Shown here piece after piece: positions 25,982-41,878 of a stretch of 64,000 nucleotides of DNA. The DNA comes from Phycisphaerales bacterium (GTDB lineage: Bacteria; Planctomycetota; Phycisphaerae; Phycisphaerales; UBA1924): positions 1 through 64,000 of the forward strand of contig JADYYE010000047.1 of assembly GCA_020853815.1 (NCBI GenBank), written 5' to 3'. Position 1 is the stretch's first letter. Each line of letters begins with the position of its first letter. The notes beneath the pieces were generated by a model, which did not search any database, was not told the DNA's origin, and saw nothing but the letters and a program-made list of their open reading frames with translations. The translations under genes were made by a program, and so were the position numbers.

Positions 25982-26887
25982 ATGGCCCGCCCGCAGTCCC
26001 ATGATTCCGGCGCCGGACGGACGCTCGCGCTGGTCGTGTGCGTGATGTTGGTCCTTGCGCTGGTGCCCGCGCGGTACTCGGGCTGGGTGCGCTGGATCGG
26101 CGGGCTGTTCGAGACGGTGCTGACCCCCATCTCGCATCCACTGTCGGGCGTGTCGCGCTGGCTTTCCAGTTCCGGCGGGCCGGGCACCGCGCCCGAGGTG
26201 CAGAGGCAACTGACGGAGGAGCGCGATCGGTTCCAGACGCTGTTCCTCCAGCAGCGCGACGAGAACACGCGCCTGCGTGACCTGATCACCGAGCTGCAGC
26301 GAGGCATGAAGCTGAACCCCGACCTGCCGGTGACGCAATTGGCCGCGCCCGTGGTTGGAGTTTCGAGCGACCTGGCGAGCGCGGTGATGCGCGTTCGCGC
26401 GGGGTCGTCGGAGGGCGTGGACAAGAACGCGGTGGTAGCGGCCGCGGGATTGCAGCTGCTCGGCAAGGTGATCGAGGTCTCGAATCGCCAGTGCGTGGTG
26501 CAGCCGATCACGTCGAAGGCGGCGGGGGGATTGATCGGCGTGGTGATGTTCGACGACGAGCATCCGGGCGCGCTCTGCCGCCTGAGCCCGACGGGCGATG
26601 GCTCGCTGAAGGGCGACGTGGGCGAGTCGGCGGACAAGAAGCCCGGCTGGGAGCAATCGGTGAAGATCGGCGCGACGGTGCGTCTGAGCGACACGGAGCG
26701 CTGGCCCAAGAACGCGCAGTACCTGGTGGTGGGGACGATCGAGCGGGTCGAGCCGAACCTGGCGATGCCGCTGCGCACGAACATCGTGGTGCGGCCGTCG
26801 CTCCGGCTGGAGCGTGTGAGCGAGGTGATTCTGCGGCTGTCGCGTGAGGCGGCGATCGAGGACGCCAAGTCCGGGGGGCGCCCATGA
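25982..26887 (+). CDS. mreC: Rod shape-determining protein MreC
   Basis: This 301-residue protein has one N-terminal membrane helix (about 12-32), a coiled coil (about 75-115; QLTEERDRFQTLFLQQRDENTRLRDL split around 75-100) and then the MreC beta-barrel domains, with GVSSDLASAVMRVRAGSSEGV and VGTIERVEPNLAMPL as family-like strands. It sits in the periplasm and links MreB with the wall synthases. It begins 40 bases after mreB with AGGAAA before the ATG, and its last four bases overlap mreD. Sequence divergence from the proteobacterial form is notable, so the assignment leans on position as well as architecture. Confidence 0.87.
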   Translation: MARPQSHDSGAGRTLALVVCVMLVLALVPARYSGWVRWIGGLFETVLTPISHPLSGVSRWLSSSGGPGTAPEVQRQLTEERDRFQTLFLQQRDENTRLRDLITELQRGMKLNPDLPVTQLAAPVVGVSSDLASAVMRVRAGSSEGVDKNAVVAAAGLQLLGKVIEVSNRQCVVQPITSKAAGGLIGVVMFDDEHPGALCRLSPTGDGSLKGDVGESADKKPGWEQSVKIGATVRLSDTERWPKNAQYLVVGTIERVEPNLAMPLRTNIVVRPSLRLERVSEVILRLSREAAIEDAKSGGRP

Positions 26888-27447
26888 ACTGGCTGCTTTT
26901 CATGCTGGTTTCGTGGGTGCTGTTCGGCCTGGAGCTCGGGCTGCGCGATGCGCTCAAGATCGGGCCGACGGGGATCGCGCCGAGCTTTGTGATGCCGCTG
27001 GCGGTGCTGGTGGCGGCGTCGGCGCCGCGGGCGCAGGCGTGGTGGGCGTGCCTGACGCTCGGGCTCATCACCGACCTCTTGAACGTGGTGGAGTTGAAGG
27101 ACCAGGGCGAGGCGGTGGGCGTGATCGGGCCTTATGCGCTGGGGTACCTGCTCGGCGGGCACTTCGTGATGACGCTCCGCGGCATGATCTTCCGGCGAAA
27201 CCCGTTCGCGATCGCTTTCCTGACGCTGCTGGCATCGGTGGTGTGCCAGAGCGTGGTGGTGGCGGCGTACACGCTGCGCGGGTTCTATGACCCGATCGTG
27301 TGGGACGCGACGGGGCAACTGATGCAGCGGATGGGCTCGGCGCTCTACACGGGCGGCGGGGCGATCATCCTGTCGCTCGCGCTCCTGCCTCTGTCGAGCA
27401 TGCTGGGGCTGACGGCGGGCGCGCCGCGAAGATTCGTGGCACGATAG
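26884..27447 (+). CDS. mreD: Rod shape-determining protein MreD-like
   Basis: This 187-residue protein overlaps the mreC stop by ATGA. It has about five hydrophobic helices covering nearly its whole length. Family features are few: LGLITDLLNV after the third helix resembles the MreD DxL motif, and the gene order fixes the call. It is expected in the inner membrane with MreC. It ends the operon; beyond its stop lie short tandem repeats and no clear terminator. Confidence 0.8.
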   Translation: MNWLLFMLVSWVLFGLELGLRDALKIGPTGIAPSFVMPLAVLVAASAPRAQAWWACLTLGLITDLLNVVELKDQGEAVGVIGPYALGYLLGGHFVMTLRGMIFRRNPFAIAFLTLLASVVCQSVVVAAYTLRGFYDPIVWDATGQLMQRMGSALYTGGGAIILSLALLPLSSMLGLTAGAPRRFVAR

Positions 27448-27452
27448 ATGAA

Positions 27453-27532
27453 GAAGTCACGAAGTCACGGAGTCACGGAGAGAATCCGTGTGAGTCGTGA
27501 GTCGTGAGTCGTGAGTCGTGAGTCGTGAGTCG
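27453..27532. repeat. Octamer then heptamer (TGAGTCG)6 tandem arrays
   Basis: Three and a half units of an 8-bp repeat (GAAGTCAC, GAAGTCAC, GGAGTCAC, GGAG) at 27453-27480 precede six perfect copies of TGAGTCG at 27491-27532. The heptamer is the reverse complement of the array at 39975-40037. Confidence 0.95.
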
Positions 27533-27563
27533 TAAGGCGGAACGAGCTACTCATTCGCAGCCT

Positions 27564-27640
27564 CCCGAATCCCGAATCCCGAATCCCGAATCCCGATGCC
27601 CGATGCCTGATGCCTGATGCCTGATGCCTGATGCCTGATG
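27564..27640. repeat. Eleven-unit heptamer array with stepwise drift
   Basis: Eleven 7-bp units run in order: four CCCGAAT, two CCCGATG, five CCTGATG. Each change appears once and is then kept, as expected from successive unit duplication. The array ends 35 bases before the nucleoside transporter ATG, inside its probable leader. Confidence 0.95.
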
Positions 27641-27675
27641 CCTTCTTCACCCACCGCATCTGATACGCTCACCGA

Positions 27676-28929
27676 ATGGACCGATACTCCGGCCTGCTCG
27701 GCATCGCGACCTTCGTGCTCATCGGCGTGGCGCTCTCCAGCGATCGCCGACGAATCCGCTGGCGCCTGGTAATTTCCGGGCTGCTGTTGCAGTTCGCGAT
27801 CGCCGCGGCGTGCCTCGGCGACTTCCTCCCCGGCGGCGGGCTGGTCGGCGTGATCGACGCGATCGCTCGCGGCTTCACGCGCGTCATCTCCTTCGCCGAC
27901 GCCGGCACGGAGTTCATCTTCGGCAAGCTGGGCGACGCGGGCGGCTCGTGGGGATTCATCTTCGCGGTCAAGGTCATGCCCGTCATCATCTTCTTCGCCG
28001 CGCTGATGAGCGTGCTCTATCACCTGCGCGTGATGCAGGTGGTCGTCGCGGGTGTCGCGTGGGTGCTCCGCCGTGCCCTTGGCGTCACCGGCGCGGAGGC
28101 GATCAGCGCCGCCGCCAACATCTTCGTGGGCCAGACCGAAGCGCCGCTCATGGTCCGCCCATACATCGCCGGCATGACGAAATCACAGCTCATGGCGATC
28201 ATGACCGGCGGGTTTGCGACGATCGCCGGGAGCGTGATGGCGGCGTACGTGGGCCTTCTCGGCGGCGAGACCGACGAGGGACGCGTCCTCTTCGCCAAGC
28301 ACCTCCTCACGGCGAGCGTCATGTCGGCGCCGGCGGGGCTGGTGATGGCCAAGCTGATGTTCCCCGAGAGCGAAACGCCCCGCGATGAATCGCTGGGATC
28401 GTTGCTCAAGGCCGAGCGGACCAGCGCGAACGTGATCGACGCGGCGGTGGTCGGTGCGGGGGACGGATTGAAGCTGGCGCTGAACGTGGCGGCGATGCTG
28501 GTGGCGTTCGTGGCGTTGATCGCGCTGATCGACTGGCCCCTGCGGCAGATCGGCGACGGGTGGAGCCTCTCGCGCGCGCTGGGCGTGGTGTTCCGACCGG
28601 CGGCGTGGCTGATGGGCGTGCCCTGGGAAGAGAGCGGGAAGTTCGGCTCGCTCCTTGGCACGCAGGTGATCGCGACCGAGTTCAAAGCGTACCTGGACCT
28701 TTCGAAGCACATCGCGGACGGCACGATGAGCGGCCGCGCGTGCCAGATCGGGACGTACGCGCTCTGCGGCTTTGCAAACATCCCGTCGATCGGGATTCAG
28801 ATCGGCGGGCTTTCGGCGATGGCGCCGGAGCGCCGCCAGGACCTGGTGAGGCTGGCGCCGCGTGCGATGTTGGCGGGCGCGCTGGCGTGCTGGATGACGG
28901 GGTCGATCGCGGGCGTGTTCATCGGCTGA
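27676..28929 (+). CDS. NupC-type concentrative nucleoside transporter
   Basis: This 417-residue membrane protein matches the CNT family: ANIFVGQTEAPLMVRPY at about 153-169 is the nucleoside-binding signature with the Gln-Thr-Glu motif, and TYALCGFANIPSIGIQIGG near 365 is the second, with Asn and Ser. About eight to ten helices surround re-entrant loops. It would import nucleosides with H+ or Na+. The start lies just after two heptamer arrays. It stands alone between mreD and a convergent kinase, so no salvage operon is visible. Confidence 0.92.
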   Translation: MDRYSGLLGIATFVLIGVALSSDRRRIRWRLVISGLLLQFAIAAACLGDFLPGGGLVGVIDAIARGFTRVISFADAGTEFIFGKLGDAGGSWGFIFAVKVMPVIIFFAALMSVLYHLRVMQVVVAGVAWVLRRALGVTGAEAISAAANIFVGQTEAPLMVRPYIAGMTKSQLMAIMTGGFATIAGSVMAAYVGLLGGETDEGRVLFAKHLLTASVMSAPAGLVMAKLMFPESETPRDESLGSLLKAERTSANVIDAAVVGAGDGLKLALNVAAMLVAFVALIALIDWPLRQIGDGWSLSRALGVVFRPAAWLMGVPWEESGKFGSLLGTQVIATEFKAYLDLSKHIADGTMSGRACQIGTYALCGFANIPSIGIQIGGLSAMAPERRQDLVRLAPRAMLAGALACWMTGSIAGVFIG

Positions 28930-28940
28930 GCGCGCGGGCG

Positions 28941-31607
28941 TCAGCGCACGATCGTGGGCTTGCCGAGCGTCGCCGAGAGCGCGGCGCCGATCGTCGCCAG
29001 CGCCATGAACCCGGCGGGAAGCCACGCCAGCGAGCCGATCGGCCCGGTGAAATCAAAGCCAACCATGAAGGCGTTGGCGACGCCCGCGGCGGTGAAGGCC
29101 GCGATGCACGCCACCAGGCCGATCGGCAGCATGAACCACGCCATCGTCACGATGAGCGCCAGTTCGATCAGCGAATCGAGTGTGCGGCTCTGGAATGACT
29201 CGAACGAGAGAAGGGCGCCGACGCAGGCCAGGGCGACAAACGCGAGCCAGCGCCGGCGCGTGGCCATGAGCGCGACCGAAACGATGAGGAGCGCGCCGTT
29301 GCTTCGCATGACGGCGTAGATGATGTTCCCCAGCACGCGCGAGACGCCGGCGCCGGGGCCGTCGATGAGCGCGCGCGTGCCGCCCACCGCGAAGAGCGCC
29401 GGCGGCTCGGCGCTGGAGAGACGAGCGCCCCACATCGCCGCGGCGGTCAGCGCCGCGAGCGTCGTGCCCACGCCCAGCCCGATTAGCACATGGCGCCCCA
29501 CCAAGGGGTCGGTGAACCCGCCCCGGAGCAGGCGCGTCCACGACACCAGCGAACCCGGGAACACGCGCCGCGCCGCCGGCTCGAACGCGATGTAATAAAG
29601 CCACAGCGACATCCCCGCCCACAGCGCCGTCGAGAGCAGCTCGCCGTTGAAGAAGATCGCCGAGGCGTCGGGCGCGGCGTCGGCGCGGACCACCACCATC
29701 ACGCCCGCCAGGAGCAGCATCCCGATCGCGGCCCGCATCGCACCCCGCCGATCGGCGCGCCCGGCCCGGAGGTTCAGGATCGCAAACACGATGCACGTCA
29801 CGCTGAAGACCAGGATGCCGCCCAGCGCGCCGAGCGAAAAGATCGACGAGGCGGGCGCGCCCTTGGGAAGTTCCGCGCTCGGCGCGGGCTCCCACGCGTA
29901 CTCCGCCGTGAAATACGCGAGCTTGGAATCGACGCTCCCGATATGCACCAGCACCGGCTCGCCGGGAAACTCGGCCAGCGTGCCGCGGAATGCCGCCAGA
30001 TGATCGACGCTGATGGGTGGGCGACGCGTGGGGGCGACGCTCTCGAAGCGTGAAGGATCGAGCTCGGCCAGGGCGAACGCGGCGCCGGGATCGACCGGGC
30101 GTGGCGCCGTCCCTCCGGGAGCGCGCCCGCGCGGCGGCACGGCGATCAACCGCTCCAACCGCCCGCGCGTGTCGGTTCGGATGTACACCTCGCCGAGGCG
30201 CGACGGGAATGGATCGATCTCGAAGACGCGGTGTTCGCCGTCGGCGGGTTCGAGCGCGCCGGGCGACGCACGCAGCCAGAACCAGAACGGGCCGGGGCGC
30301 CGGTCAACGGCGCGCGCGCCGTCAGTGGAGACCGGGCGGCGGAGGAACGCGTCGCGCGGCTCGAAGCGCCGCACGACGTAGGGAAGCGATTGGTCGTGGC
30401 CGAGCGCGCGAATCGTCTCCAAAGCCCGATCGGCCAGGACATCCAGCGACTTTTCCGGGCGCGCGTGGGCCAGCAGGGAGCGGCTCGACGAAAAAAAGAT
30501 CGCCGCCACCGACATGACGAGGACGACCGCCGCGACCAGCCACGCTTTGGCGTGCGGCCAGCGATCGCTGGAGCCCGAGGCGGCGACGAGTTCGGGTGAT
30601 GGCGTCTCGCCCGCGGCCAGCGCTGCCGCCAATGGATCGCCCCCCGGCAACGCCGCGGCGATCGCGAGCGCCGAGCCCGGGCGCTGGTTCGGGTCGTGCT
30701 CAAGACAGTGGAGGATCACGCGCTCCACGGCGGGATCAAGATCGCGGACGAGCGAACTTGGGTCCGCGGGGCGCGTCTGCGACTGGTGCAGGCGCGAGAG
30801 TTCGTCGATGGAGGCGGCGTGGATCGCGGGCCTGCCGGTGAAAAGCTCGTACAGGACCAGGCCGAGAGAGTAGAGATCGCTGCGGCGCGTCACCTCGCGC
30901 CCTTCGAGCTGTTCCGGGGCCATGTACGCGGGCGTGCCGGCGCGGATGGAGGCGGCGTCGGTGAAGTCCTGCAGCAGGCCGGCGACGCCGAAGTCGGTGA
31001 GGCGGACGTTGCCGCGCCCGTCGAGCATGACGTTGGCGGGCTTGAGATCGCGATGGATCACGCCCTGCTCGTGGGCGGCGGCGAGCGCGAAGCAGAGCTG
31101 TCGCGCGATCTGGACCGATTTTTCGTGGGAAGGACGCCCGAGGCGGCGGAGCACGGAGGCGAGGTCCTCGCCGTCGATGTACTCCATGCAGAGGAAGGTC
31201 ACCGGCGAGCCATCGGGCCCGGCGGCCTGCGCGATGTCAAAGACGCGGCAGACGTTGGGGTGCGAGACCTGGCGCGTGAGGCGGACCTCGGAGCGGAGAC
31301 GATCGAGTCGGACCGGGTCAGCGGCGTAGTGCGCCGGGAGAAGCTTGATCGCGACGGAGGTGCTGAGCTGGAGGTCGTCGGCGCGCCAGACCTCGCCCAT
31401 GCCGCCCGCGCCCAGGCGATTCACGATGCGATATCGCTCGGCGATCAGCACGCCCGGCGCGAGAGAAGGTTGCCCAGGCGACGCGCCGGGCGACACGATG
31501 GTCGCGGCCCGGGCGATGGATGCGTGCGCGTGCGAGGGCTTCGAGCCGCCGGCGCCGGGCGTTGTCAGTGTTGGATCATCGCCGGGTTGGCTCGGGCGCT
31601 CGGGCAC
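28941..31607 (-). CDS. Serine/threonine protein kinase with C-terminal membrane domain
   Basis: This 888-residue protein has a Pknb-like kinase domain at about 60-330. RLGAGGMGEVWRA is the glycine loop, VAIKLL holds the lysine, and HRDLKPANVML, DFGVA and GTPAYMAPEQL are the catalytic, metal and activation motifs, all intact. A membrane helix at about 405-425 separates it from a periplasmic region, and the last 280 residues hold about seven further helices, so the output side includes a large polytopic domain of unknown role. I chose GTG 31607; no better ATG exists in frame near the domain. It converges with the transporter, ending 12 bases away. Confidence 0.88.
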   Translation of the reverse strand: MPERPSQPGDDPTLTTPGAGGSKPSHAHASIARAATIVSPGASPGQPSLAPGVLIAERYRIVNRLGAGGMGEVWRADDLQLSTSVAIKLLPAHYAADPVRLDRLRSEVRLTRQVSHPNVCRVFDIAQAAGPDGSPVTFLCMEYIDGEDLASVLRRLGRPSHEKSVQIARQLCFALAAAHEQGVIHRDLKPANVMLDGRGNVRLTDFGVAGLLQDFTDAASIRAGTPAYMAPEQLEGREVTRRSDLYSLGLVLYELFTGRPAIHAASIDELSRLHQSQTRPADPSSLVRDLDPAVERVILHCLEHDPNQRPGSALAIAAALPGGDPLAAALAAGETPSPELVAASGSSDRWPHAKAWLVAAVVLVMSVAAIFFSSSRSLLAHARPEKSLDVLADRALETIRALGHDQSLPYVVRRFEPRDAFLRRPVSTDGARAVDRRPGPFWFWLRASPGALEPADGEHRVFEIDPFPSRLGEVYIRTDTRGRLERLIAVPPRGRAPGGTAPRPVDPGAAFALAELDPSRFESVAPTRRPPISVDHLAAFRGTLAEFPGEPVLVHIGSVDSKLAYFTAEYAWEPAPSAELPKGAPASSIFSLGALGGILVFSVTCIVFAILNLRAGRADRRGAMRAAIGMLLLAGVMVVVRADAAPDASAIFFNGELLSTALWAGMSLWLYYIAFEPAARRVFPGSLVSWTRLLRGGFTDPLVGRHVLIGLGVGTTLAALTAAAMWGARLSSAEPPALFAVGGTRALIDGPGAGVSRVLGNIIYAVMRSNGALLIVSVALMATRRRWLAFVALACVGALLSFESFQSRTLDSLIELALIVTMAWFMLPIGLVACIAAFTAAGVANAFMVGFDFTGPIGSLAWLPAGFMALATIGAALSATLGKPTIVR

Positions 31608-31636
31608 GCGCGGAGCATAACACAGGCGGAACGAGA

Positions 31637-31672
31637 ATGGCCCGCGTCGTCGGGTCGGACGGCACGGGCCAT
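31637..31672 (-). terminator. Hairpin terminator after the first sorted secreted protein
   Basis: A 15-bp stem with one wobble and one mismatch (31637-31651 with 31658-31672) is followed on the minus strand by TCTCGTT. A near-identical hairpin follows the paralogue at 32657. Confidence 0.7.
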
Positions 31673-31752
31673 GAGAGAGAGAATGAGGAGAGATTGCTGC
31701 TGTGTGGTTGGACTCCTTGAACAGGCGAAAGTTTCCGGGATCGTGGTGAAGA

Positions 31753-32409
31753 TCAGCGTTTGCGGCGGAGGGCGGCCAGACCGCCGAGCAGGGCGAGGGA
31801 GGCGGCGCCGGGGGCGGGGACGATGTCGAACTCCATGCGGTCGAAGCGGACGTCGAAGTCGGGACCGAAGTAGGTGACGGACTGGGCGACGCCGGAGAAC
31901 GGGATGGTGGCGAGCTTCCAGGTGTTGAAGGTGCCGTTGGGATCGCCGCCGTTGGTCTGGGCGTTGGGGTTGATGGTGAGCGAGCCGAGGTTGAGGCCCG
32001 TGCCGCTGGGGCCGGACCAGACATCGATCTGGCAGGACTGCTTGGCGGAGTAGAAGGAGGACCACTGGCCGTTGAATCCGGCGGGGACGTTGATGATGCC
32101 GAAGGCGACGCCGGTGATGTTGGCGAAGTACATGGAGCCCATGCCGTCGGGTTCCCATGCGGTGTCGCCCCAGAAGCCGACGTTGGAGGTGATATCGGAG
32201 TCGTTTCCGGCGAAGAAGCCCGGGTCGAAGAAGACGCCGGAGTTGTTGATGGCGCTGCCCATGGAGCCGGTGCCGCCGGCGTAGGCGTTGAGGATCAGCT
32301 CGGTGTCCTGGAAGCCTTCGAAGGAGAAGGTGGTGGCGGCGCGTGCAGCCGAAGGAAGGACGGATGCGGCGAGGGCGGCGGCGAGAACGAGCGAAGCGGT
32401 GCGGTGCAT
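31753..32409 (-). CDS. Secreted protein with PEP-CTERM-like sorting tail (copy 1)
   Basis: This 218-residue protein has a signal peptide (ending SAARA, residues 1-24), a beta-rich domain (FSFEGFQDTELILNAYAGG; GNDSDITSNVGFWGDTAWEP) and a C-terminal tail VPAPGAASLALLGG...RRKR: a Pro-containing motif, a short hydrophobic helix and a basic end. This is the layout of PEP-CTERM sorting signals, with PAP for PEP. An exosortase would cleave and attach such proteins, but none is in the window. AGGAG 8 bases before the ATG supports the start. The paralogue at 32833 is about 60% identical by eye, with the same leader and terminator. Confidence 0.82.
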   Translation of the reverse strand: MHRTASLVLAAALAASVLPSAARAATTFSFEGFQDTELILNAYAGGTGSMGSAINNSGVFFDPGFFAGNDSDITSNVGFWGDTAWEPDGMGSMYFANITGVAFGIINVPAGFNGQWSSFYSAKQSCQIDVWSGPSGTGLNLGSLTINPNAQTNGGDPNGTFNTWKLATIPFSGVAQSVTYFGPDFDVRFDRMEFDIVPAPGAASLALLGGLAALRRKR

Positions 32410-32450
32410 GACTGGAACTCCTGGTGGGAACGGGTGTTTCGTGTTTGCGT

Positions 32451-32466
32451 GCCGCAGTGTTGCGGC
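32451..32466 (-). promoter_or_regulatory. Conserved leader hairpin of copy 1
   Basis: GCCGCA-GTGT-TGCGGC forms a 6-bp hairpin 42-57 bases upstream of the ATG. It is followed on the plus strand by GGGAAAGCGACA, and the same arrangement occurs before copy 2. It could be a leader RNA structure or an operator; it may also simply reflect the duplication. Confidence 0.45.
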
Positions 32467-32513
32467 AGTGGGAAAGCGACATGCGTGAGAGAGAATCACG
32501 GAGAGAATGAAAG

Positions 32514-32545
32514 GAAGTGGCGAAGTGGCGAAGTGGCGAAGTGGA
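32514..32545. repeat. 8-bp tandem array (GAAGTGGC)4
   Basis: Three perfect copies of GAAGTGGC and a fourth ending in A lie between the two paralogues. The unit resembles the AAGTGGTC array at 7861. Confidence 0.9.
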
Positions 32546-32656
32546 AGGCCCCTACCCCATTGGTCACAACCCTCGTTCCGTTGCATTCTCACCACTCCCA
32601 ACTCCCCACTCCCGTTCTTGGCTCCCGCGACTCAAGATCCACGGCTTGAAACAAGA

Positions 32657-32691
32657 ATGGCCCGCGTCGTCGGTTGGACGGCACGGGCCAT
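32657..32691 (-). terminator. Hairpin terminator after the second sorted secreted protein
   Basis: A 15-bp stem with one wobble and one mismatch (32657-32671 with 32677-32691) is followed on the minus strand by TCTTGTTT. It is almost the same sequence as the hairpin at 31637. Confidence 0.75.
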
Positions 32692-32832
32692 GAGAGATTC
32701 AGAGAGAAGAGAGACTGCGGCGTGTGGTTCGGTGGGATTCTCCTGCTTGAGGTGAGAGACCTTGGCGGGTGTGGTGGAGAGTTCGCTGAGCGTGTGGTGC
32801 GATTGGCGTGTGGTGGGCCGAGGTGTGGTGAG

Positions 32833-33462
32833 TTATCGTTTGCGGCGGAGGGCAGCCAGACCGCCGAGCAGGGCGATGGAGGCGGCGCCGGGCGCGGGGA
32901 CCTTGCCGAAATCCATGTGGTCGAAGCGAACGTCGAAAGACGGGCCGTTGTAGGTGACGGACATGGCGGTGCCGGAGAAGGGGATGGTGGCGACCTTCCA
33001 GGTGTTGAAGGTGCCGTTGGGATCACCGCCATTGATCTGGGCGTTGGGGTTGATGACGGTCCAGCCGAGGAGCGAGCCGGTGCCGCCCGGTCCGCTCCAG
33101 ACATCGATGCGGCACTGGGCTTTGGCGGCGTAGGAGGTTGACCACTGGCCGGTGAAGCCGGCGGGGACATCGATGACGCCCCAGTTGGCGGGCGAGAGGA
33201 CGTACATGGTGCCCATGCCGTCGGGCTCGTAGGCGGTGTCGCCCCAGTAGCCGACGTTGGCGGTGATGTCGGAGTCGTTTCCGACCTGGAAATCAGGGCT
33301 GAACATGACGCCTGAGTTGCTGATAGCGCTGCCCATGGAGCCGGTGGCGCCGTTGTAGGCCTGCAGGATCATCTCGGTGTCCTGGAAGCCTTCGAAGGAG
33401 ATGGTGGCTGCGTTGGTGGAGGCGGCGGCGAGGCAGAGAGCGAGGGCGGTGTGACGGTGCAT
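32833..33462 (-). CDS. Secreted protein with PEP-CTERM-like sorting tail (copy 2)
   Basis: This 209-residue paralogue of the neighbouring gene has a shorter signal peptide (ALALCLAAASTNA) and the same domain order: ISFEGFQDTEMILQAYNG, GNDSDITANVGYWGDTAYEP, then a VPAPGAASIALLGG...RRKR tail. AGGAG lies 8 bases before the ATG. The domain is a jelly-roll-like beta fold of unknown function. Two linked copies with separate terminators suggest recent duplication with independent expression. Cell-surface or released location is inferred from the tail. Confidence 0.82.
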   Translation of the reverse strand: MHRHTALALCLAAASTNAATISFEGFQDTEMILQAYNGATGSMGSAISNSGVMFSPDFQVGNDSDITANVGYWGDTAYEPDGMGTMYVLSPANWGVIDVPAGFTGQWSTSYAAKAQCRIDVWSGPGGTGSLLGWTVINPNAQINGGDPNGTFNTWKVATIPFSGTAMSVTYNGPSFDVRFDHMDFGKVPAPGAASIALLGGLAALRRKR

Positions 33463-33496
33463 GACGTGAACTCCTGTGTCGTTGCGTATGGCTTGT

Positions 33497-33512
33497 GCCG
33501 CGGTATTGCGGC
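33497..33512 (-). promoter_or_regulatory. Conserved leader hairpin of copy 2
   Basis: GCCGC-GGTATT-GCGGC lies 35-50 bases upstream of the ATG, followed on the plus strand by GGGGAAAGCGACA. The stem is kept while the loop differs from copy 1, which mildly favours a structured role. Confidence 0.45.
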
Positions 33513-33664
33513 GAGGGGAAAGCGACACGCGCGGGCGGGAGTCACGGGGAGAACACGAAAAGTGTTGGGTGAGCGGGGGGGACGGGGGACGCGGAACTGG
33601 CACCCGCCCGCGAGGGCGTGGGTGAATTGGCCCGAGAGGGCGTATGGCCGTCCGGGCGTTGCTG

Positions 33665-34330
33665 TTATTTGTCCGACTTGTCGCGGGCGTCGACCTGGGC
33701 GCGGACGCGCATGCGTTCGCGTTCGATGACGGGCTTCCAGCCGGAGTCGTTCTCGAGCATGACGGCGCGGTCGAGGGCGTCGAGAATGGTGTGGTCGGCG
33801 CGCCCCAGCTTGCGGGTCTGGAGCGACATGCCGCGGAGGGAGGGGAGCCAGTTGGGGTCGCGTTCGAGGGACATCATGTAATATTTGAGGGAGTCCTCGG
33901 CGTGGGAGCGCTCGCCGTAGAGGAGGCCGAGGTTTTCGTAGGGTCGGGGGTCGGCGGGCAGGCGATCGGCGGCCTGCTTGAAGGCTTCGGCGGCTTCGAG
34001 GGCCTTGCCCTGCTTCATGAAGACGAGGCCGAGGTTGTTCCAGCCGGCGCCGGCGGAGGGTTCGAGCCGGAGGGCCTCGACGTAGAGGTCCTGGGCCTCG
34101 GTGAGCTTGTTTGCGTTCTGGGCCTTCTGGGCCTCGGCGAGGAGGCGCATGGCCTCGGCGCGACGGGCGGAGGCGTCGTCCGGCGCGGGCGGCGTGGCGT
34201 GGCCGGCGCAGGCGACGAGTGAGGCGGAGGCGAGGAAGCAGGCCGCGAGCGTGGAGATCGCGACGGCGCGGCGGAAGGGGGAGCGCCGGGACAACGGGCG
34301 GACGATCACGGCGCGGGAGCGCTCCGTCAT
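33665..34330 (-). CDS. TPR lipoprotein at the end of the type II secretion operon
   Basis: This 221-residue protein starts with an ATGA overlap of the preceding gene. A signal peptide ends in a lipobox (LVAC, about residues 36-39), then about three tetratricopeptide repeats follow (AQDLYVEALRLEPSAGAGWNNLGLVF; SLKYYMMSLERDPNWLPSL). TPR lipoproteins such as PilF/PilW assist assembly of secretin rings at the outer membrane. The position as last gene of a pseudopilus operon and the overlap make a pilotin-like role attractive, but that is inference. No catalytic motif is present. Confidence 0.8.
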   Translation of the reverse strand: MTERSRAVIVRPLSRRSPFRRAVAISTLAACFLASASLVACAGHATPPAPDDASARRAEAMRLLAEAQKAQNANKLTEAQDLYVEALRLEPSAGAGWNNLGLVFMKQGKALEAAEAFKQAADRLPADPRPYENLGLLYGERSHAEDSLKYYMMSLERDPNWLPSLRGMSLQTRKLGRADHTILDALDRAVMLENDSGWKPVIERERMRVRAQVDARDKSDK

Positions 34331-34923
34331 GGATTGACCCTTTCCCAACGCGAGAACTGCACGGAGCTGAGGTTCCATTGGTCTTGTTCGATCCTGAGCG
34401 TGAGGGCGTGGAGATCGAGGCCCGGGATTTCCTCGAGCGAGAGGTCGATCCAGCGGAGCAGGGCCGCGAGGTCCGGGTCTTTGACGTTGGTGAAGGACGT
34501 GATGACGCGCTTGGTGGGCTGGCCGGCGCGGGGTGTGTCGCGGGTGGTGGGGACGCCGGGGGAATTGACGAGGCCGGCCTGGCTGGCCTGGGCCTGGATT
34601 CGGCTGCCCAGGGTGGTGATGGAGTCGCCGGCCTTGGGGCCCTGGTCGCCTGAGGCGCGGGCGGCGACTTCGCGCCAGCGCGTACCGAGCTCGATGAAGC
34701 GTTGGCGCTGATCGGCGGCGTTGCCGAGCTGCGTTTTCGCGGCGTTGAGGCGTCCCCAGGCCAGGAGCAGCGCGCCGGCGGCGACGATCAGGAGGACGCA
34801 GGCGAGTGCGACGAGGTGGATGGGCCGGTTGGCGCGTTCGGTGCGCGCGGCGCGGGCGGCCATGATGGCGCGACGCTCGTCGGCGCTGAGTTCGCTCTGG
34901 TTCAGGGCGGCGGCGTTGGTCAC
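34327..34923 (-). CDS. GspM-like type II secretion protein
   Basis: This 198-residue protein has a single membrane helix at about 38-58 and a periplasmic part of about 130 residues (DPDLAALLRWIDLSLEEIPGL; ALTLRIEQDQWNLSSVQF) with the ferredoxin-like pattern of GspM/PilO. It starts at GTG, overlapping the TGA of the upstream gene, with GGAGGG 8 bases before. GspM pairs with GspL in the inner-membrane platform. Sequence likeness is low, so the call depends on topology, size and order within the operon. Confidence 0.7.
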   Translation of the reverse strand: MTNAAALNQSELSADERRAIMAARAARTERANRPIHLVALACVLLIVAAGALLLAWGRLNAAKTQLGNAADQRQRFIELGTRWREVAARASGDQGPKAGDSITTLGSRIQAQASQAGLVNSPGVPTTRDTPRAGQPTKRVITSFTNVKDPDLAALLRWIDLSLEEIPGLDLHALTLRIEQDQWNLSSVQFSRWERVNP

Positions 34924-36566
34924 GAGGTCTTCCCTCCAGTGGAGGGCTTGGCGGGGACGGCCCACTTGGCGGTGAACTCGCAGCGCACGCGAGAGGACGG
35001 CGAGGGAGTCGTGGGCGTGGGCGTTCCTCGATTCACGGGCGCGCTGATCTCTTCACGGAACTGGCGCGTCCAGGCGCCCAGGGCCGAGCCGCCCACGCGC
35101 GAGAGGGCGTCGTAGAGCTCTTCGGCGCGTGCGAGGTCGGCGACGATGACGACGACCTTGGCGCCGGTGACGGGGGTCATCGAGACTTCGGTGAGTTCGA
35201 CGTCTTCGATGCCGACGACGAGGCTGATGGTTTCGAGCTCCTCGCGGACGGGCATGGTGGCCTCGGCGGCCTCCGGGGGCGCGAGTTCCTTTTCGCGTTT
35301 GGCGATCTCGGCGTGGAGATAGTCGAGTTCGAGGCCGGGGACGGGCGCGGTGGGGAGCTTGAGCGTGGCGAGTTCATCGCGCCAGGACTTGTCGAGGGCG
35401 GTGGCCTGGCCGGTGAGGAGGGAGGCGTGCTGTCCGACGCGGTATGCGGCCACGCCAAGTGCGGCGGCGAGCGCGGCGACGGCGCCGGCGGCCCAGAAGT
35501 AGAGGCGGCGATGGTGGCGGCCGGGGCGTGCGGAGAGAGAGGGCAGGCCGCCCGTGCCGCGGGTGGCGATGGACTCGGTGGGGTCGTGCCCGGCTTCGCG
35601 GGCGTGGTCGATGGCGGCGGCGCAACGCGAGAGGGTGGCGCCGATGGGATCGGGATCGACCGCGAGGTCGACGGCGGCGCCGGGCCAGGCGCGGCCGATG
35701 GCGGCGCCGAAAGAGGCGGAGGTGTCGCCTTCGGGGTCGGGTTCTGGGATGACGACGATGACGCGCGAGGGGCTGAGGCCGAGCTGGGCGGCCCAGGCGA
35801 GCCAGTCGGCGGCGAGGCGCGAGGCGTCGCTCTCATGGAGCTTGGGGGCGTTGGCGTTTCCGGCGGCGACGCGGGACGAGCCGCCCGCGAGCAACTCTCC
35901 GTGGCGCGACCAGACCCAGTGGAGGCGGGGCGCGGCGGCGGGCTCGATGAGCACGATGCCGGTGGTGATGGTGGCGCTGGAATCCGAGGGGGAGGTTCCG
36001 GCGGCGGGGTCCCAGGCGCGGGCCATGGCGTGCCAGAGCGAGCAGGCGGCGCCGACGCCCAGGCCGCGGGCGTCGAGCGCGTCGACGAGGAGTCGGCCCG
36101 CGATGTCGGAGCCTGCGAGGACGCCCATGCGACGCCGGAGGGCGGCGGTCGGCTGAGATTTTTTCGCTGTGCGGGGGCTTGGGGTGTCGGGGGCGAGGGG
36201 TTGAAGAGCCGACTCCATGGGGTTGGAGGCGTAGACGGAGAGGACGCCGGCGGCGCCATCGGCGCCTTGGAGGGCGGAGCCGGCCAGGGCCATGGCACGG
36301 ACGACGGAGGGATCGGCGCTGGGCGTGTTGACCCAGGCGCAGGTGAGTCCCTCGGTGTCGAGGCAGAGGAGATCGAGGGCGCGATCTTTGGGAGAGTCTT
36401 TCGGGAGGTGCTCGCCGAGCCAGAGGGCGGCGGCGGACATGTCGAGCTGGTCCGAGCCGGTGGCGGGGAGCTCGAAGAGTTCGTCGGAGCGCTGACCGAC
36501 GAGGCGCACTTGGCGCGTGACAATGCCGCGTTCGGCCCGTTGAAGATACGCGACGCGCGAGCTCAC
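34920..36566 (-). CDS. GspL-like type II secretion protein
   Basis: This 548-residue protein has a cytoplasmic actin-like region (about 1-345), one membrane helix near 380-400 (YFWAAGAVAALAAALGVAAY) and a periplasmic coiled-coil plus ferredoxin-like end, the GspL/PilM-PilN layout in one chain. It uses GTG overlapping the upstream TGA and overlaps the GspM-like gene in the same way. It would bind the secretion ATPase GspE, which is not in this window. The length exceeds the usual 400 residues, mostly in the cytoplasmic half. Confidence 0.7.
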   Translation of the reverse strand: MSSRVAYLQRAERGIVTRQVRLVGQRSDELFELPATGSDQLDMSAAALWLGEHLPKDSPKDRALDLLCLDTEGLTCAWVNTPSADPSVVRAMALAGSALQGADGAAGVLSVYASNPMESALQPLAPDTPSPRTAKKSQPTAALRRRMGVLAGSDIAGRLLVDALDARGLGVGAACSLWHAMARAWDPAAGTSPSDSSATITTGIVLIEPAAAPRLHWVWSRHGELLAGGSSRVAAGNANAPKLHESDASRLAADWLAWAAQLGLSPSRVIVVIPEPDPEGDTSASFGAAIGRAWPGAAVDLAVDPDPIGATLSRCAAAIDHAREAGHDPTESIATRGTGGLPSLSARPGRHHRRLYFWAAGAVAALAAALGVAAYRVGQHASLLTGQATALDKSWRDELATLKLPTAPVPGLELDYLHAEIAKREKELAPPEAAEATMPVREELETISLVVGIEDVELTEVSMTPVTGAKVVVIVADLARAEELYDALSRVGGSALGAWTRQFREEISAPVNRGTPTPTTPSPSSRVRCEFTAKWAVPAKPSTGGKTS

Positions 36567-37261
36567 GGGTTTCGGCCTCCGGCCTTGGTGCGATCGCGGA
36601 GGGCTTTCATGCGGGCCTCGGCTTCCATGCGGCGGCGCTGCATGTCTTCGTTGCCTCCGGCTTCGGCGGCGTCGTCGGGAGAGGGCGGGACGGCGGGAGC
36701 GGCGGCGGCGTCGGTGATGGTGGTGACGGCGGAGGCGGTGCGGGCGGATTTTTCGACGCGGCGCTCGCCCTGGGCGTCGCGGATGACAACGCCCTCGGCG
36801 TCGATGGTGACGACTTCGAGCGTTCCGCCGTCGACCATCGCGATGGACTTGCCCTCGGCGATCATGCGTTGCTTTTCGCCGACGCGGAGGAGGGCGATCT
36901 TCCGCGTGGGTTCGAGGACGGCGCCGAGGTATTTGATTTCGGTGTTGTTCGGTTGGTTGGGGTTGGGGACTTCGGTGGGCTCGGGTTGGGGCGCGGCGGG
37001 CTTGGGCTTGTTGGAGACCAGGGCAAGCCGGGCCGCGGCGGCGTTCATGTCGTGGGAGGGCGTGGGCTTTCCGGCCTGTGGGTCGGCGGGCGGCTTGATG
37101 TCGGGCCATTGGATCGGCCCGGGGGATGCGGGGGCGTCGCCCAAGCCGGGCAGGCGAAAAACGAGGGCGGCGAGTGCCAGGAGGGCGGCGGCGATCGCGG
37201 CGAACTGCGCGATTCGCCTGGCGTGGCTCGCTTCTCTCTGGGTCAGGCTCCGCCCGCTCAT
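36563..37261 (-). CDS. GspC/PilP-like type II secretion protein
   Basis: This 232-residue protein has a membrane helix at about 20-40 and, at about 105-175, a small beta domain (EIKYLGAVLEPTRKIALLRVG; GGTLEVVTIDAEGVVIRDAQ) like the homology region of GspC or PilP, which contacts the secretin. The linker is Pro-rich, and the C-terminal 50 residues are charged and helical. AAGGAG lies 5 bases before the ATG at 37261. It overlaps the GspL-like gene. Whether GspC or PilP is the better name cannot be settled by eye. Confidence 0.68.
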   Translation of the reverse strand: MSGRSLTQREASHARRIAQFAAIAAALLALAALVFRLPGLGDAPASPGPIQWPDIKPPADPQAGKPTPSHDMNAAAARLALVSNKPKPAAPQPEPTEVPNPNQPNNTEIKYLGAVLEPTRKIALLRVGEKQRMIAEGKSIAMVDGGTLEVVTIDAEGVVIRDAQGERRVEKSARTASAVTTITDAAAAPAVPPSPDDAAEAGGNEDMQRRRMEAEARMKALRDRTKAGGRNP

Positions 37262-37338
37262 GGTCACTCCTTGACGTGCCGCGATTCTGGTGAATCGATG
37301 CGGCGTCGGGCGATGGTTCGCCCGTTATTGCCATCAGT

Positions 37339-38136
37339 CTATCGAACTTCGAGCTTTGTCCACGCGAGGATGGAGGTTCGGCGGGCGCCGGCGTCGCCCT
37401 GGCCGCGCTGGACCATGTTTCCGATGACGGCGTAACCGCCGTAGCGGGCGACGGCACGTCCGTCGGGGGTGCGGGCTTCGAGGATGGCGCGGAAGAAGGT
37501 GGGATCGACGGCGACCATACGTGTGATGGCGTCGCGTTCGTTGTTTTCCAGGCCGATGCCGTTCAGGGCCTCGCTGAGGTCTTCGGGCGCGATGGAGGTT
37601 CGCCCGCGCAGCTCGATGAGGGCGGCGGCGAGATCGGACTGTTTTTCGGGCGAGACGTTGGCGTTGACTATGGCGGCGATGACCTCGGGGGGAGCGCTGC
37701 CGAGGCTGACTTCGATGGGACCGAGCTTGCGGGTGAGAGATGGAAGTCGTGGGCCGGCGGTGGCGGCGAGTTCGTCGAAGGCGCGGCGCGGCGCGGGGAC
37801 GCCGGCGGCGGCGAGGGTGGCGCGATCGGCGTTCATGGTGCCCTGGGCGTCGAAGAGTCGGAGGGAGATGACCGTGCCGTCGGCGAGGGTGACGTCGAGG
37901 GCCTTGCCGGATTCATCGAGGAGTTCGCGGACGGGCCTGTTGCCGCGGGTGCGGAGCCAGTAGTCGATGATCTCCTTGGCCCCGCGTCCGAAATGGTGCT
38001 CGCGGTATTCGTCGGCCTGGCGCTTGACGGAGAGGGCCTGGGCGCTCTGGCGGTCGAGGAGTACGCCGATCATGACGCCGGCGATGGCGGTGAGCATGAC
38101 GACCATGGGGAGTGCGAAGGCCTTGGAGGGCTTCAT
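37339..38136 (-). CDS. GspK-like minor pseudopilin
   Basis: This 265-residue protein has an N-terminal hydrophobic helix after a short basic leader (KPSKAFALPMVVMLTAIAGVMIGVL), then a globular domain with tandem helix-hairpin motifs (NANVSPEKQSDLAAALIELRG; APEDLSEALNGIGL) typical of GspK. GspK caps the pseudopilus tip. It overlaps the upstream GspJ-like gene by four bases. A 77-base gap separates it from the GspC-like gene. A classical prepilin Gly at the cleavage site is not obvious. Confidence 0.75.
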   Translation of the reverse strand: MKPSKAFALPMVVMLTAIAGVMIGVLLDRQSAQALSVKRQADEYREHHFGRGAKEIIDYWLRTRGNRPVRELLDESGKALDVTLADGTVISLRLFDAQGTMNADRATLAAAGVPAPRRAFDELAATAGPRLPSLTRKLGPIEVSLGSAPPEVIAAIVNANVSPEKQSDLAAALIELRGRTSIAPEDLSEALNGIGLENNERDAITRMVAVDPTFFRAILEARTPDGRAVARYGGYAVIGNMVQRGQGDAGARRTSILAWTKLEVR

Positions 38137-39212
38137 TGGTTGCCCCCCGTGCCCGGCGTTGCGGGGGTTTTCGGCGGCTTGGGCTTGGGGCCGCCGGTGC
38201 TGAAGGGGGAGCCGCCGCCGGCGTTGGCGGGCTGATTGGGGGCGTTGGGTTGGTTGGAGTCGGCGTTGTCGGCTTCGGTGTTTTCTTCATCCGCGCCGTT
38301 GGCGCCGCGGGCCTCGCTCCCGTTATTCCAATCGACCTCGAACATCCACTTGCGCCAGAGTCCTTCGACGGTCTCGATCTCGATCTGGATGTAGCCGGGC
38401 AAGTCGCGTTCCCAGGTGGCGGCCAGTTCGTCCTTCATCTGTGAATCGTCGAACATCTGGACGTGGAAATAAACGAGGCGGTCCATGAGTTCGACGGGGG
38501 GCGGCGGGGGAGCGCCGACCGGCGTGCCGTCGTCGCCGAGAGAGGGCAGAGGTCGCCACCAGAGGGAGTAGGTCTGGGGTCGGTCGGGCGAGCGATCGCC
38601 GGGGACGGTGGGGTCAAGAGTTGGGCGGAGTTCAAGGACGGCGCGGAAAGCCTGGGAGACGCCAGCGCGGGACTGAGAGAGCTTGGACATGGCTCCCGAG
38701 TCGGAGTCGTTGTCGGCGAACATGCTGTCTTCGCTCTCGCGGAGCTTGGCATAGGCGAGGTCGTCGGCTTTGGAGCGGACGGGGATGGGCGAGCGGGAGA
38801 CAACGAGCTCGACGCGCTGGGCGAGGCCGGCGCCCGGGCCGCCTTGGCCTGTGTCGCGCCGGCGGAGGAGCACGCCCGAGAGCTGGGGATCGCGCGAGAG
38901 GATGAGGCGGGGGGGCGGCGGCGGGGCGGCGGGGACGGACGCGGCGTTCGGATCGCCTTCGGTGTTTCGGCTATCGCGCGCGAGGCGCGTCGACATAAGG
39001 AGATTGGAGAATGCGCGGCTCAGCACCTTATGGAGCCGTTCCGACTCGGTCACGCGCTCGAACTTCGCTCCGGCGAGGCGGTCGCTGCGCTGCAGGGTCA
39101 TGAGCACGCCCAGCGCGCCGATGAGGACGAGCGAGCCGATCGACGAGGCGAGGATGACCTCCAGGAGCGTGAAGGCGCGGGCGTGGGTGGGCGGGTGATG
39201 GCGGGGGTTCAC
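38133..39212 (-). CDS. GspJ-like minor pseudopilin
   Basis: This 359-residue protein has a prepilin leader ending RAFTLLEVILASSIGSLVLIG; Ala replaces the usual Gly before the Phe, with Glu at position +5. The rest is beta-rich with a Pro-rich, low-complexity tail (about 310-359). The order GspI-like, GspJ-like, GspK-like supports the name. It is long for GspJ (usually about 200 residues) because of internal and C-terminal extensions. Four-base overlaps link it to both neighbours. Confidence 0.75.
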   Translation of the reverse strand: MNPRHHPPTHARAFTLLEVILASSIGSLVLIGALGVLMTLQRSDRLAGAKFERVTESERLHKVLSRAFSNLLMSTRLARDSRNTEGDPNAASVPAAPPPPPRLILSRDPQLSGVLLRRRDTGQGGPGAGLAQRVELVVSRSPIPVRSKADDLAYAKLRESEDSMFADNDSDSGAMSKLSQSRAGVSQAFRAVLELRPTLDPTVPGDRSPDRPQTYSLWWRPLPSLGDDGTPVGAPPPPPVELMDRLVYFHVQMFDDSQMKDELAATWERDLPGYIQIEIETVEGLWRKWMFEVDWNNGSEARGANGADEENTEADNADSNQPNAPNQPANAGGGSPFSTGGPKPKPPKTPATPGTGGNQ

Positions 39213-39868
39213 GAGCCACCTCCGGGCGTGCGGAAGGTGGGCCTGGAACCGGCCGGCTTGGGAGCGGTCCTCGGAGTGGCGCGGTTGGGATTGGCGGGCT
39301 GGGCGGGTGTGGAGGGACGGGGGCCGGCGGGTGAGGAGCCCCCGCCTCCGGTCATGTCATCGAAGAGGCGTCGGCGTCCGGCGTCGCTGTTGATCAGTCG
39401 ATCGAACGCGTCGGGATTGCGATAGGCCATGGGGTACATGATGCGGGTGAGGGCGGCCTTGGGCATGGGCGAATCGGGCTCGAAGGCCTGTGAGCCGCCC
39501 GATTCCTCGCCCAGCCAGACGCGCACCGAGACCTGCTTCACGCGATCGAGCATGGAGCGGCGGGTGTCCGCGGCCTCCCTGGTTGCATCACCGGTGGTGG
39601 TGACGGTGACGGGGTCGATGGTGAGCGCCCAACGGAAGCGATCCTTGCCGTATTCGAGCGGGAGTGTTGAGTCGGGGAGCTGCTCGGGGTCGTCGAGGTA
39701 TTGGAGGATGATGCGATTGGCGAGTTCGTAGGCGGCCAGGGTGCGTTGTTCGTGGTGCTGGCGTCCGAGGACGAAAGAGAGCGCACCGAAGACGGCGGCG
39801 GCGACGAGGGCGAGGAGCGCCGAGGCGAAGAGGGTCTCAAGGAATGTCAGGCCGCGGCGGGAGGGCAT
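39209..39868 (-). CDS. GspI-like minor pseudopilin
   Basis: This 219-residue protein has a type IV prepilin leader (SRRGLTFLETLFASALLALVAAAVF) with Gly before the Leu-Thr-Phe-Leu-Glu core, as PilD substrates have. The globular part is short, and the last 50 residues are Pro/Ala/Arg-rich. The ATG at 39868 gives a normal six-residue leader; the frame is open further upstream. It overlaps the GspJ-like gene and lies 173 bases after gspG, across a heptamer repeat array. Confidence 0.72.
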   Translation of the reverse strand: MPSRRGLTFLETLFASALLALVAAAVFGALSFVLGRQHHEQRTLAAYELANRIILQYLDDPEQLPDSTLPLEYGKDRFRWALTIDPVTVTTTGDATREAADTRRSMLDRVKQVSVRVWLGEESGGSQAFEPDSPMPKAALTRIMYPMAYRNPDAFDRLINSDAGRRRLFDDMTGGGGSSPAGPRPSTPAQPANPNRATPRTAPKPAGSRPTFRTPGGGS

Positions 39869-39974
39869 GGGGAGGGCTCGGGGACGGGGCAATAGGGAAT
39901 GGGGAAAGAGATGGAGAGCAAATGGCAAACTTCACGAGCTGACGTGGGATCAGAGTTTGATGGATACTTCCAAC

Positions 39975-40037
39975 CGACTCACGACTCACGACTCACGACT
40001 CACGACTCACGACTCACGACTCACGACTCACGACTCA
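39975..40037. repeat. Nine perfect copies of CGACTCA
   Basis: A 63-bp heptamer array ends 4 bases beyond the gspG stop codon, between gspG and the GspI-like gene. Its unit is the reverse complement of TGAGTCG at 27491. All nine units are identical, which suggests recent expansion. Confidence 0.97.
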
Positions 40038-40041
40038 CGAC

Positions 40042-40458
40042 CTACTGCGGCTGCTTGTTCATGGTGAAGTAGTCGATGTCGTCGGGGGTGCCGGGCTGTT
40101 TGTCGGGGCCGGGGGAGCGCAGGGTGAAGTCCTGGCCGTTGAGCCCTTGGGGGGAGTAGATGAGATCGGAGCCCCAGCCGTCCTTGGCGGGCTTGGCGGA
40201 GTCGAGGATTTTGGCGGCGTAGAGGGAAGCGATGGCGGGGGGGTAGGCGCTGTTGTCGAGGTGGTAGGTCTTGAGGGCGTTGGAGACGATGTCGAGGGTG
40301 GCCATAGTGGCCTTGGCTTTGGCTTTTTCGCCGCCGGCGGTCACGCTGTAGGCGACGATGCCCGAGAGCACCGCGATGATCGCGACGACGAGCATGAGTT
40401 CGAGGAGCGAGAACGCGCGGGCGTGGATTCGATTCTTCTTCACGGCAGGCATCTCCAT
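40042..40458 (-). CDS. gspG: Major pseudopilin GspG
   Basis: This 138-residue protein has a prepilin leader (RAFSLLELMLVVAIIAVL, Glu at +5) and the GspG domain: ATLDIVSNALKTYHLDNSAYPP, then AKDGWGSDLIY and a C-terminal loop with PGPDKQPGTPDDID that matches the calcium-binding site of GspG. Ala replaces Gly before the cleaved Phe, as in the GspJ-like protein. GspG forms the body of the pseudopilus. It lies 24 bases after gspF on the same strand. Confidence 0.92.
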   Translation of the reverse strand: MEMPAVKKNRIHARAFSLLELMLVVAIIAVLSGIVAYSVTAGGEKAKAKATMATLDIVSNALKTYHLDNSAYPPAIASLYAAKILDSAKPAKDGWGSDLIYSPQGLNGQDFTLRSPGPDKQPGTPDDIDYFTMNKQPQ

Positions 40459-41839: not shown

Positions 41840-41878
41840 CAAATGGCTCAATCGCAAATGGCCAAATGGCCAAATTGA
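41840..41878. repeat. 8-bp tandem array (CAAATGGC)
   Basis: Units of CAAATGGC at 41840, 41855 and 41863, a degenerate unit at 41871 and a 7-base interruption lie upstream of both gspF and the dehydrogenase gene. The rest of the 269-base gap shows no gene. Confidence 0.8.

What the first reader, a model, noticed from the sequence alone, without database searches (positions are those of the whole stretch)
27491..40037. The same perfect heptamer array at two loci in opposite orientation
(TGAGTCG)6 at 27491-27532 and (CGACTCA)9 at 39975-40037 are reverse complements, 12 kb apart, both directly after genes. All units are identical. Cyanobacteria carry short tandemly repeated heptamers with no known function; a comparable class in planctomycetes would be of interest.
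Basis: seen in the sequence. Interest (0 to 1): 0.6.

Follow-up and report, generated by a model that had tools for sequence, protein, structure and literature searches.

The report
Outward-pointing short repeats at gene ends
This planctomycete genome carries an estimated few hundred short tandem repeats of 7 or 8 letters placed right beside gene ends and mostly pointing away from the gene; they belong to a known but unexplained class of bacterial repeats, and here they follow the class's placement rule without the G-runs once used to explain it.

Summary
In detail: two perfect TGAGTCG arrays, 6.3 and 9.6 copies. Their 'opposite orientation' is one rule: each has TGAGTCG on the sense strand, downstream of its gene's stop codon. 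They are not alone. The genome (Phycisphaerales draft, 4.5 Mb) has TGAGTCG arrays at 7 or more loci. A 515-kb sample holds 20 perfect period-7 and 26 perfect period-8 arrays, all outside called genes, with no comparable excess at other periods. Arrays track gene ends (convergent > tandem > divergent gaps), and the purine-rich strand points away from the nearest gene border in 67 of 86 cases (40 of 43 within 50 nt of a stop). Congeners keep, resize, lose or replace arrays at the same site, so they are real and mutable. An octamer-linker-heptamer cassette has been copied to about ten loci. The same placement is published for G-rich heptamers of Xanthomonas and Nostoc (Rehm 2015); most units here have no G-tract and half are octamers, so G-quadruplexes cannot be the general reason. 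Best reading: slippage-driven gene-end simple repeats, partly spread by copying, their direction filtered by gene-border constraints; a positive function is unproven. New variant of a known kind.

The parts
27455..27480 (+). octamer array AGTCACGG/GAAGTCAC, about 3 copies, between the MreD-position stop codon and the heptamer array
27472..27500 (+). octamer-linker-heptamer junction GTCACGGAGAGAATCCGTGTGAGTCGTGA, one copy of a cassette recurring in all four genomes of the genus
27490..27533 (+). perfect (TGAGTCG)6.3 array, sense to the upstream gene
27563..27596 (+). perfect heptamer array (AATCCCG)4.9, absent from the orthologous gap of G003
27602..27643 (+). perfect heptamer array (GATGCCT)6, 32 nt upstream of the nucleoside transporter start; G003 has a single unit here
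26884..27447 (+). 187-aa ORF in the MreD position after MreB and MreC (no Pfam match of its own)
27676..28929 (+). Na+-dependent nucleoside transporter (PF07662, PF07670, PF01773)
39975..40041 (-). perfect (TGAGTCG)9.6 array, abutting the stop codon of the T2SS protein G pseudopilin, sense to it
40042..40458 (-). T2SS protein G-like pseudopilin (PF08334, PF07963)
32514..32544 (+). perfect octamer array (GAAGTGGC)3.9
7824..7885 (+). octamer arrays AGCGAGGC (overlapping a stop codon) and AAGTGGTC, sense after a gene end
41855..41875 (+). short octamer array CAAATGGC, replaced by a heptamer array CCCATTG in congener G001
1546..1565 (+). short octamer array GAGTGACG, 10 nt after a stop codon, sense

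Best explanation
The two arrays belong to a genome-wide set of gene-end simple sequence repeats with 7- or 8-nt units. (1) Shown: they sit in gene-end gaps, the purine-rich strand points outward from the gene border, and unit number and unit word change at the same site between species. (2) Shown: a short cassette (octamer, linker AGAGAATAC.., TGAGTCG heptamer) has been copied to about ten loci in this genome. (3) Inferred: copy number changes by slipped-strand mispairing during replication; loops of 7-8 nt are too long for mismatch repair (established knowledge), which fits the absence of comparable 1-6 nt arrays. (4) Inferred: arrays survive only where they do no harm. Coding DNA and promoter regions are avoided, and near a start codon the purine-rich, Shine-Dalgarno-like strand is kept antisense. 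After a stop codon the purine-rich strand lies on the mRNA tail; no specific molecular task for this tail is shown.
For: Period spectrum 7 and 8 only, all 46 perfect arrays outside called genes. Density 1.33/kb in convergent, 0.66 in tandem and 0.21 in divergent gaps (densities computed from its counts). Outward orientation 67/86 (p=1.9e-7), 40/43 within 50 nt of a stop, 52/65 after thinning to one per block. Purine gradient of 0.60 to 0.44 across array-bearing convergent gaps, none in gaps without arrays. At orthologous sites arrays are kept but resized, expanded from what is a single unit in G003, lost or replaced by other words. Recurrent linker. Outward strand pairs better with the anti-Shine-Dalgarno sequence, -2.1 versus about 0 kcal/mol. 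Heptamers are the commonest long simple repeats in many genomes and polymerase slippage was proposed for them (Mrazek 2007, as cited in PMC4679880).
Against: Slippage alone does not explain why the same word occurs at many unlinked loci. The constraint argument explains the orientation near starts better than the stronger orientation near stops, where no harm of the reverse orientation is evident. Genes come from a home-made caller on 0.5-0.8 Mb of draft sequence. No population data on copy-number change within a species.
Confidence: 0.55

Rival explanations
1. The arrays are functional gene insulators. Any transcript entering a gene from outside, in either direction, runs through a C-rich, G-poor, weakly structured repeat that Rho could use as a loading site, so inbound transcription is stopped at the border.
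For: Purine-outward means pyrimidine-rich RNA for inbound transcripts from both sides. The genome encodes a protein with a Rho_N domain in a 690-aa frame. Array-bearing convergent gaps lack the excess hairpin complementarity seen in gaps without arrays, so arrays and hairpins may be alternatives.
Against: Calothrix, with the same word and placement, belongs to a phylum reported to lack Rho (PMC13289151). Some words have as many G as C on the inbound strand (GAAGTCAC, GGCATCA). Congeners lose arrays at orthologous gaps.
Confidence: 0.15
2. The unit of spread is a mobile REP-like hairpin cassette, moved as single-stranded DNA by a Y1 (RAYT-type) transposase and fixed downstream of genes; slippage then expands its two arms into the octamer and heptamer arrays.
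For: Cassette copied to about ten loci with imperfect dyad TCACG..CGTGA. Three full-length Y1_Tnp genes in the genome. REP-type elements lie 3' of genes.
Against: The Y1_Tnp loci examined carry other palindromes or other octamer arrays, and none carries this cassette. Pairing beyond the 5-bp core is mixed. Most arrays are not in the cassette. Arrays are no more complementary across the gap than re-paired controls.
Confidence: 0.1
3. The arrays act as G-quadruplex-forming regulators, as proposed for GGGAATC and GGGGAYT repeats of Xanthomonas and Nostoc.
For: Same placement rule (PMC4692102). A few words here have G-tracts (CCCCATT, AATGGGC).
Against: TGAGTCG has no G-tract. 70 of the 86 arrays scored lack GGG/CCC and follow the orientation rule at least as well (56/70).
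Confidence: 0.04
4. The repeats give stop codons in all three frames just after a gene, as a backstop against readthrough; 7 and 8 are not multiples of 3, so TGA appears in every frame.
For: True for TGAGTCG on the sense strand. In other phyla the first TGA of an array often is the gene's stop codon.
Against: Of 61 stop-proximal arrays, 17 have all-frame stops on the sense strand and 18 on the antisense strand. GAAGTCAC, the commonest octamer, has none in sense. The overlap with stop codons is partly trivial, because any frame reading into TGAGTCG ends there.
Confidence: 0.04
5. Assembly or binning artefact.
For: Contigs end inside arrays (G000 C6 and C318, G003 C38 and C155).
Against: Arrays at the same sites in independent MAGs of four species and in a near-complete Calothrix genome and isolate genomes. 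The arrays in the window are shorter than a read.
Confidence: 0.01

Closest known systems
G-rich heptamer repeats GGGAATC of Xanthomonas and GGGGA(C/T)T of Nostoc PCC 7120 (Rehm et al. 2015, PMC4692102)
   Same: Period 7, hundreds of loci, intergenic, under-represented between divergent genes, within 50 bp of the stop on the coding strand or within 50 bp upstream of the start on the non-coding strand, facing inverted pairs in Xanthomonas, unit number varying between close relatives.
   Different: Here most words have no G-tract, octamers are as common as heptamers, one genome uses many words, and words are replaced at the same site between congeners.
STRR heptamers of heterocystous cyanobacteria (Calothrix, Nostoc)
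   Same: Short identical heptamers, intergenic, several words per genome. Calothrix NIES-4105 carries TGAGTCG itself as an outward inverted pair between convergent genes (L309).
   Different: Different dominant words (GCTGAGT); period 8 rare in the Calothrix sample.
TAACTGA direct repeats of marine Beggiatoaceae (MacGregor 2015, PMC4679880)
   Same: Heptamer direct repeats, intergenic, scattered occurrence across phyla.
   Different: One word, two to six copies, mostly just upstream of start codons in forward orientation rather than after stops.
Long simple sequence repeats of 5-11 nt (Mrazek 2007, as cited in PMC4679880 and PMC4692102); 6-8 nt repeats of Burkholderia mallei/pseudomallei and (GATAGRA)n of Chloroflexus (PMC6749651)
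   Same: Heptamer predominance and slippage as the proposed source.
   Different: I saw no gene-border orientation rule reported in the passages read.

Membership tests
Bacterial heptamer/octamer LSSR (STRR-like) | head-to-tail identical units of 5-11 nt longer than chance | tested here: met
   46 perfect runs at period 7/8 in 515 kb, none in simulation
Bacterial heptamer/octamer LSSR (STRR-like) | dispersed at many intergenic loci of the genome | tested here: met
   7 TGAGTCG loci; all 46 perfect arrays outside called genes
Bacterial heptamer/octamer LSSR (STRR-like) | unit number varies between close relatives | tested here: met
   9.6, at least 12, 2.4 and about 6 units at the pseudopilin 3' end in four congeners
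Rehm-type gene-border heptamers | coding strand near stops, non-coding strand near starts, scarce between divergent genes | tested here: met
   40/43 within 50 nt of stops; 18/25 near starts (p=0.04); divergent 0.21/kb versus convergent 1.33/kb
Rehm-type gene-border heptamers | G-tracts able to form quadruplexes | tested here: not met
   TGAGTCG has none; 70 of 86 arrays lack GGG/CCC. Filed as a relative in placement, not as a member of the quadruplex class
REP/RAYT elements | palindrome flanking a cognate Y1 transposase gene | tested here: not met
   cassette not found beside the Y1_Tnp genes
Phase-variation (contingency) repeats | unit number alters promoter spacing or reading frame of a surface gene | tested here: inconclusive
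   arrays lie mainly after stops; one lies 32 nt upstream of a nucleoside transporter start; no expression data

The most novel reading that the evidence does not exclude
One general, unrecognised process writes 7-8 nt purine-outward repeats at gene borders in many bacterial phyla, independent of the word. Examples would be transcription-linked expansion of the untranslated mRNA tail region, or healing of breaks by outward 3'-end extension with the polarity of a telomere repeat; G-quadruplexes and STRR would be special cases. Stop-side support outside the genus: 42/52 for TGAGTCG and 45/57 for other words, with crude ORFs.
Probability: 0.12. Interest if true: 0.75.

Novelty: new variant of a known kind. 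Interest (0 to 1): 0.42.

Why it matters
Heptamer arrays have been noted in cyanobacteria since about 1990 without a function. A quadruplex role was inferred in Xanthomonas and Nostoc from G-tracts plus placement. This genus shows the same placement with words that cannot form quadruplexes and with octamers, so the placement rule needs another cause. It also offers four related genomes in which arrays are kept, resized and swapped at the same site, which makes the origin of such repeats testable.

Tried and rejected
Long hairpins between the two ends of a gap: array-bearing halves are no more complementary than re-paired ones. All-frame stop function: 17 sense versus 18 antisense. Y1 transposase as carrier: cassette not beside the Y1_Tnp genes. 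TGAGTCG as a specially favoured word: the scan found it in many phyla, but in 294 planctomycete genomes TGAGTCG and the reversed word are similarly rare (4 and 3 genomes), and the 109:7 excess over TGAGTCA may reflect the near-palindromy of TGAGTCA (my inference). Spread by viruses: 3 viral contigs, against 6 and 9 for two control words of equal composition. Covariation of the cassette hairpin beyond its TCACG/CGTGA core: mixed, and the core was fixed by my search pattern. Degenerate 7/8 periodicity beyond the perfect arrays: gone after masking.

Full report
Observation. The window holds (TGAGTCG)6.3 at 27490-27533 on + and (TGAGTCG)9.6 on - at 39975-40041, all units identical. The first lies in the gap between the ORF in the MreD position and a Na+-dependent nucleoside transporter, together with an octamer array and two further heptamer arrays. 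The second abuts the stop codon of a T2SS protein G-like pseudopilin. Each array carries TGAGTCG on the sense strand of the gene it follows, so 'opposite orientation' only means that the two genes lie on opposite strands.

Genome-wide. The window is part of a 4.52-Mb, 329-contig draft. TGAGTCG arrays of three or more copies occur at seven loci, and further junctions of shorter arrays at others. In 515 kb that I could read, perfect arrays number 20 at period 7 and 26 at period 8, all outside called genes. The only other periods with counts worth the name are multiples of 3, mostly inside genes, and multiples of 7 or 8; a simulated sequence twice as long had none at 7 or 8. By extrapolation the genome holds about 400 (inference). 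Arrays cover about 3.4 kb of 80 kb of called intergenic DNA, and no weaker 7/8 periodicity remains once perfect arrays are masked. Words fall into a small vocabulary: TGAGTCG, GATGCCT/GGCATCG, AATCCCG, CCCCATT, and the octamers GAAGTCAC, GGAGTCAC, GAAGTGGC, GCGAGACA, GAAGAGAC.

Placement. In 785 kb of the genus, using a simple coding-model gene caller, 91 of 97 arrays lie outside genes: 37 in 27.8 kb of convergent gaps, 42 in 63.9 kb of tandem gaps and 7 in 33.1 kb of divergent gaps. Density thus follows the number of gene ends. The purine-rich strand points away from the nearest gene border in 67 of 86 cases: 49/61 at stops, 18/25 at starts, 40/43 within 50 nt of a stop, 33/42 for heptamers, 34/44 for octamers, and 56/70 for units without a GGG or CCC tract; 52/65 after thinning. 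Array-bearing gaps therefore run from purine-rich to pyrimidine-rich whatever the gene directions, and gaps without arrays do not.

History. G000 and three congeners were compared at orthologous sites. After the pseudopilin, all four species have the TGAGTCG array, with 9.6, at least 12 (contig end), 2.4 and about 6 partly degenerate units. After the MreD-position gene, G003 keeps TGAGTCG but has only one GATGCCT unit where G000 has several; G002 has no perfect array; G001 has GAAGAGAC, AATGGGC and TGTCCGCT arrays instead. At the C258 GGCATCA site G002 has no array. So arrays persist, expand, vanish and are swapped in place. A cassette GAAGTCACGAAG-AGAATAC..-CGTGAGTCG recurs at about ten loci of G000 and in all congeners; a shared non-repeated linker cannot arise by local slippage, so some copying between loci took place. 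One Y1_Tnp locus carries an octamer array of another word and others carry different palindromes, but none carries this cassette.

Spread among bacteria. The word TGAGTCG is in all four genomes of the genus and in none of 57 others of the family and order, and in 4 of 294 planctomycete genomes, own included. One scan of 85,000 species genomes, cut at 119 loci, found it in Bacteroidota, Chloroflexota, several proteobacterial lineages, Calothrix, Acidobacteriota, Cloacimonadota, Treponema, Actinomycetota, Omnitrophota, Gemmatimonadota, Nitrospira, Fibrobacter and others, often at many loci of a genome. In those loci arrays outside crude ORFs point outward at stops in 42/52 (TGAGTCG) and 45/57 (other words); counting only stops that precede the array by 1-60 nt, 13/19 and 19/21; the start rule did not hold for other words (7/23). 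Part of the TGAGTCG figure is trivial because the word holds TGA in every frame. In Calothrix two TGAGTCG arrays face each other between convergent genes, each in sense to its own gene. Independent rise in many lineages is the simplest reading (inference).

Known work. Rehm et al. 2015 (PMC4692102) reported GGGAATC and GGGGA(C/T)T heptamers in Xanthomonas and Nostoc with the same placement and scarcity between divergent genes, and suggested quadruplexes. MacGregor 2015 (PMC4679880) described TAACTGA repeats before start codons. Mrazek 2007, as cited there, found heptamers the commonest long simple repeats in most genomes and proposed polymerase slippage. The arrays here are a further set of this kind. 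What is added: the placement rule holds for words without G-tracts and for octamers, one genome uses many words, and words are replaced at fixed sites. I found no report for planctomycetes in the library searched; the library is open-access only.

Mechanism. Copy number by slippage is supported by the resizing and by expansion of what is a single unit in a congener. Copying between loci is supported by the cassette. Position is explained by tolerance: coding and promoter DNA are avoided. Orientation near starts can be explained by keeping the Shine-Dalgarno-like strand off the mRNA. Orientation after stops is the strongest fact and the least explained. A Rho-type insulator reading fits both borders and the genome has a Rho_N protein, but Calothrix shows the same pattern in a phylum reported to lack Rho. 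I put 55% on slippage plus constraint, 15% on an insulator/terminator role, 10% on a mobile cassette as the main source.

Limits. Draft genomes; 0.5 of 4.5 Mb read for the own-genome census; gene borders from an unvalidated caller; several arrays per gap are not independent (thinned test given); contig ends inside arrays make counts lower bounds.

Noticed in passing
G000 C83:9446 and C130:14214 (L026, L027); related sequence in G002 C4 (L115): A REP-like palindromic element containing CAGCCCGAAGGGCTGG lies just downstream of TGAGTCG arrays at two G000 loci, with a related sequence at a G002 locus; not present in the window.
   Followed up: partly
L295-L297 (G000 C7, C161, C154): Three full-length Y1_Tnp (RAYT-like) transposase genes; the neighbourhoods of two show GAAGG-type palindromes unlike the heptamer cassette.
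   Followed up: partly
convergent gaps without arrays, G000-G003: The two halves of such gaps are more complementary than re-paired halves (-65.0 versus -61.2 kcal/mol, sd 0.95), suggesting hairpin terminators or REPs; array-bearing gaps lack this.
   Followed up: no
window 19322-19595: About four copies of a 63-bp in-frame repeat with a conserved coding pattern, probably a repeat protein.
   Followed up: no
window 47162-47212: 12-mer repeat TGGGGCTGGGTC inside a gene called on the minus strand (46150-47253).
   Followed up: no
L309 11776-11814 and 12166-12190 (Calothrix sp. NIES-4105): Two TGAGTCG arrays facing each other between convergent genes, the same layout as in the planctomycete.
   Followed up: yes
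G012, G021, G035 (same family, other genera): These genomes carry arrays of the reversed word GCTGAGT, which is also the dominant heptamer of the Calothrix genome.
   Followed up: partly
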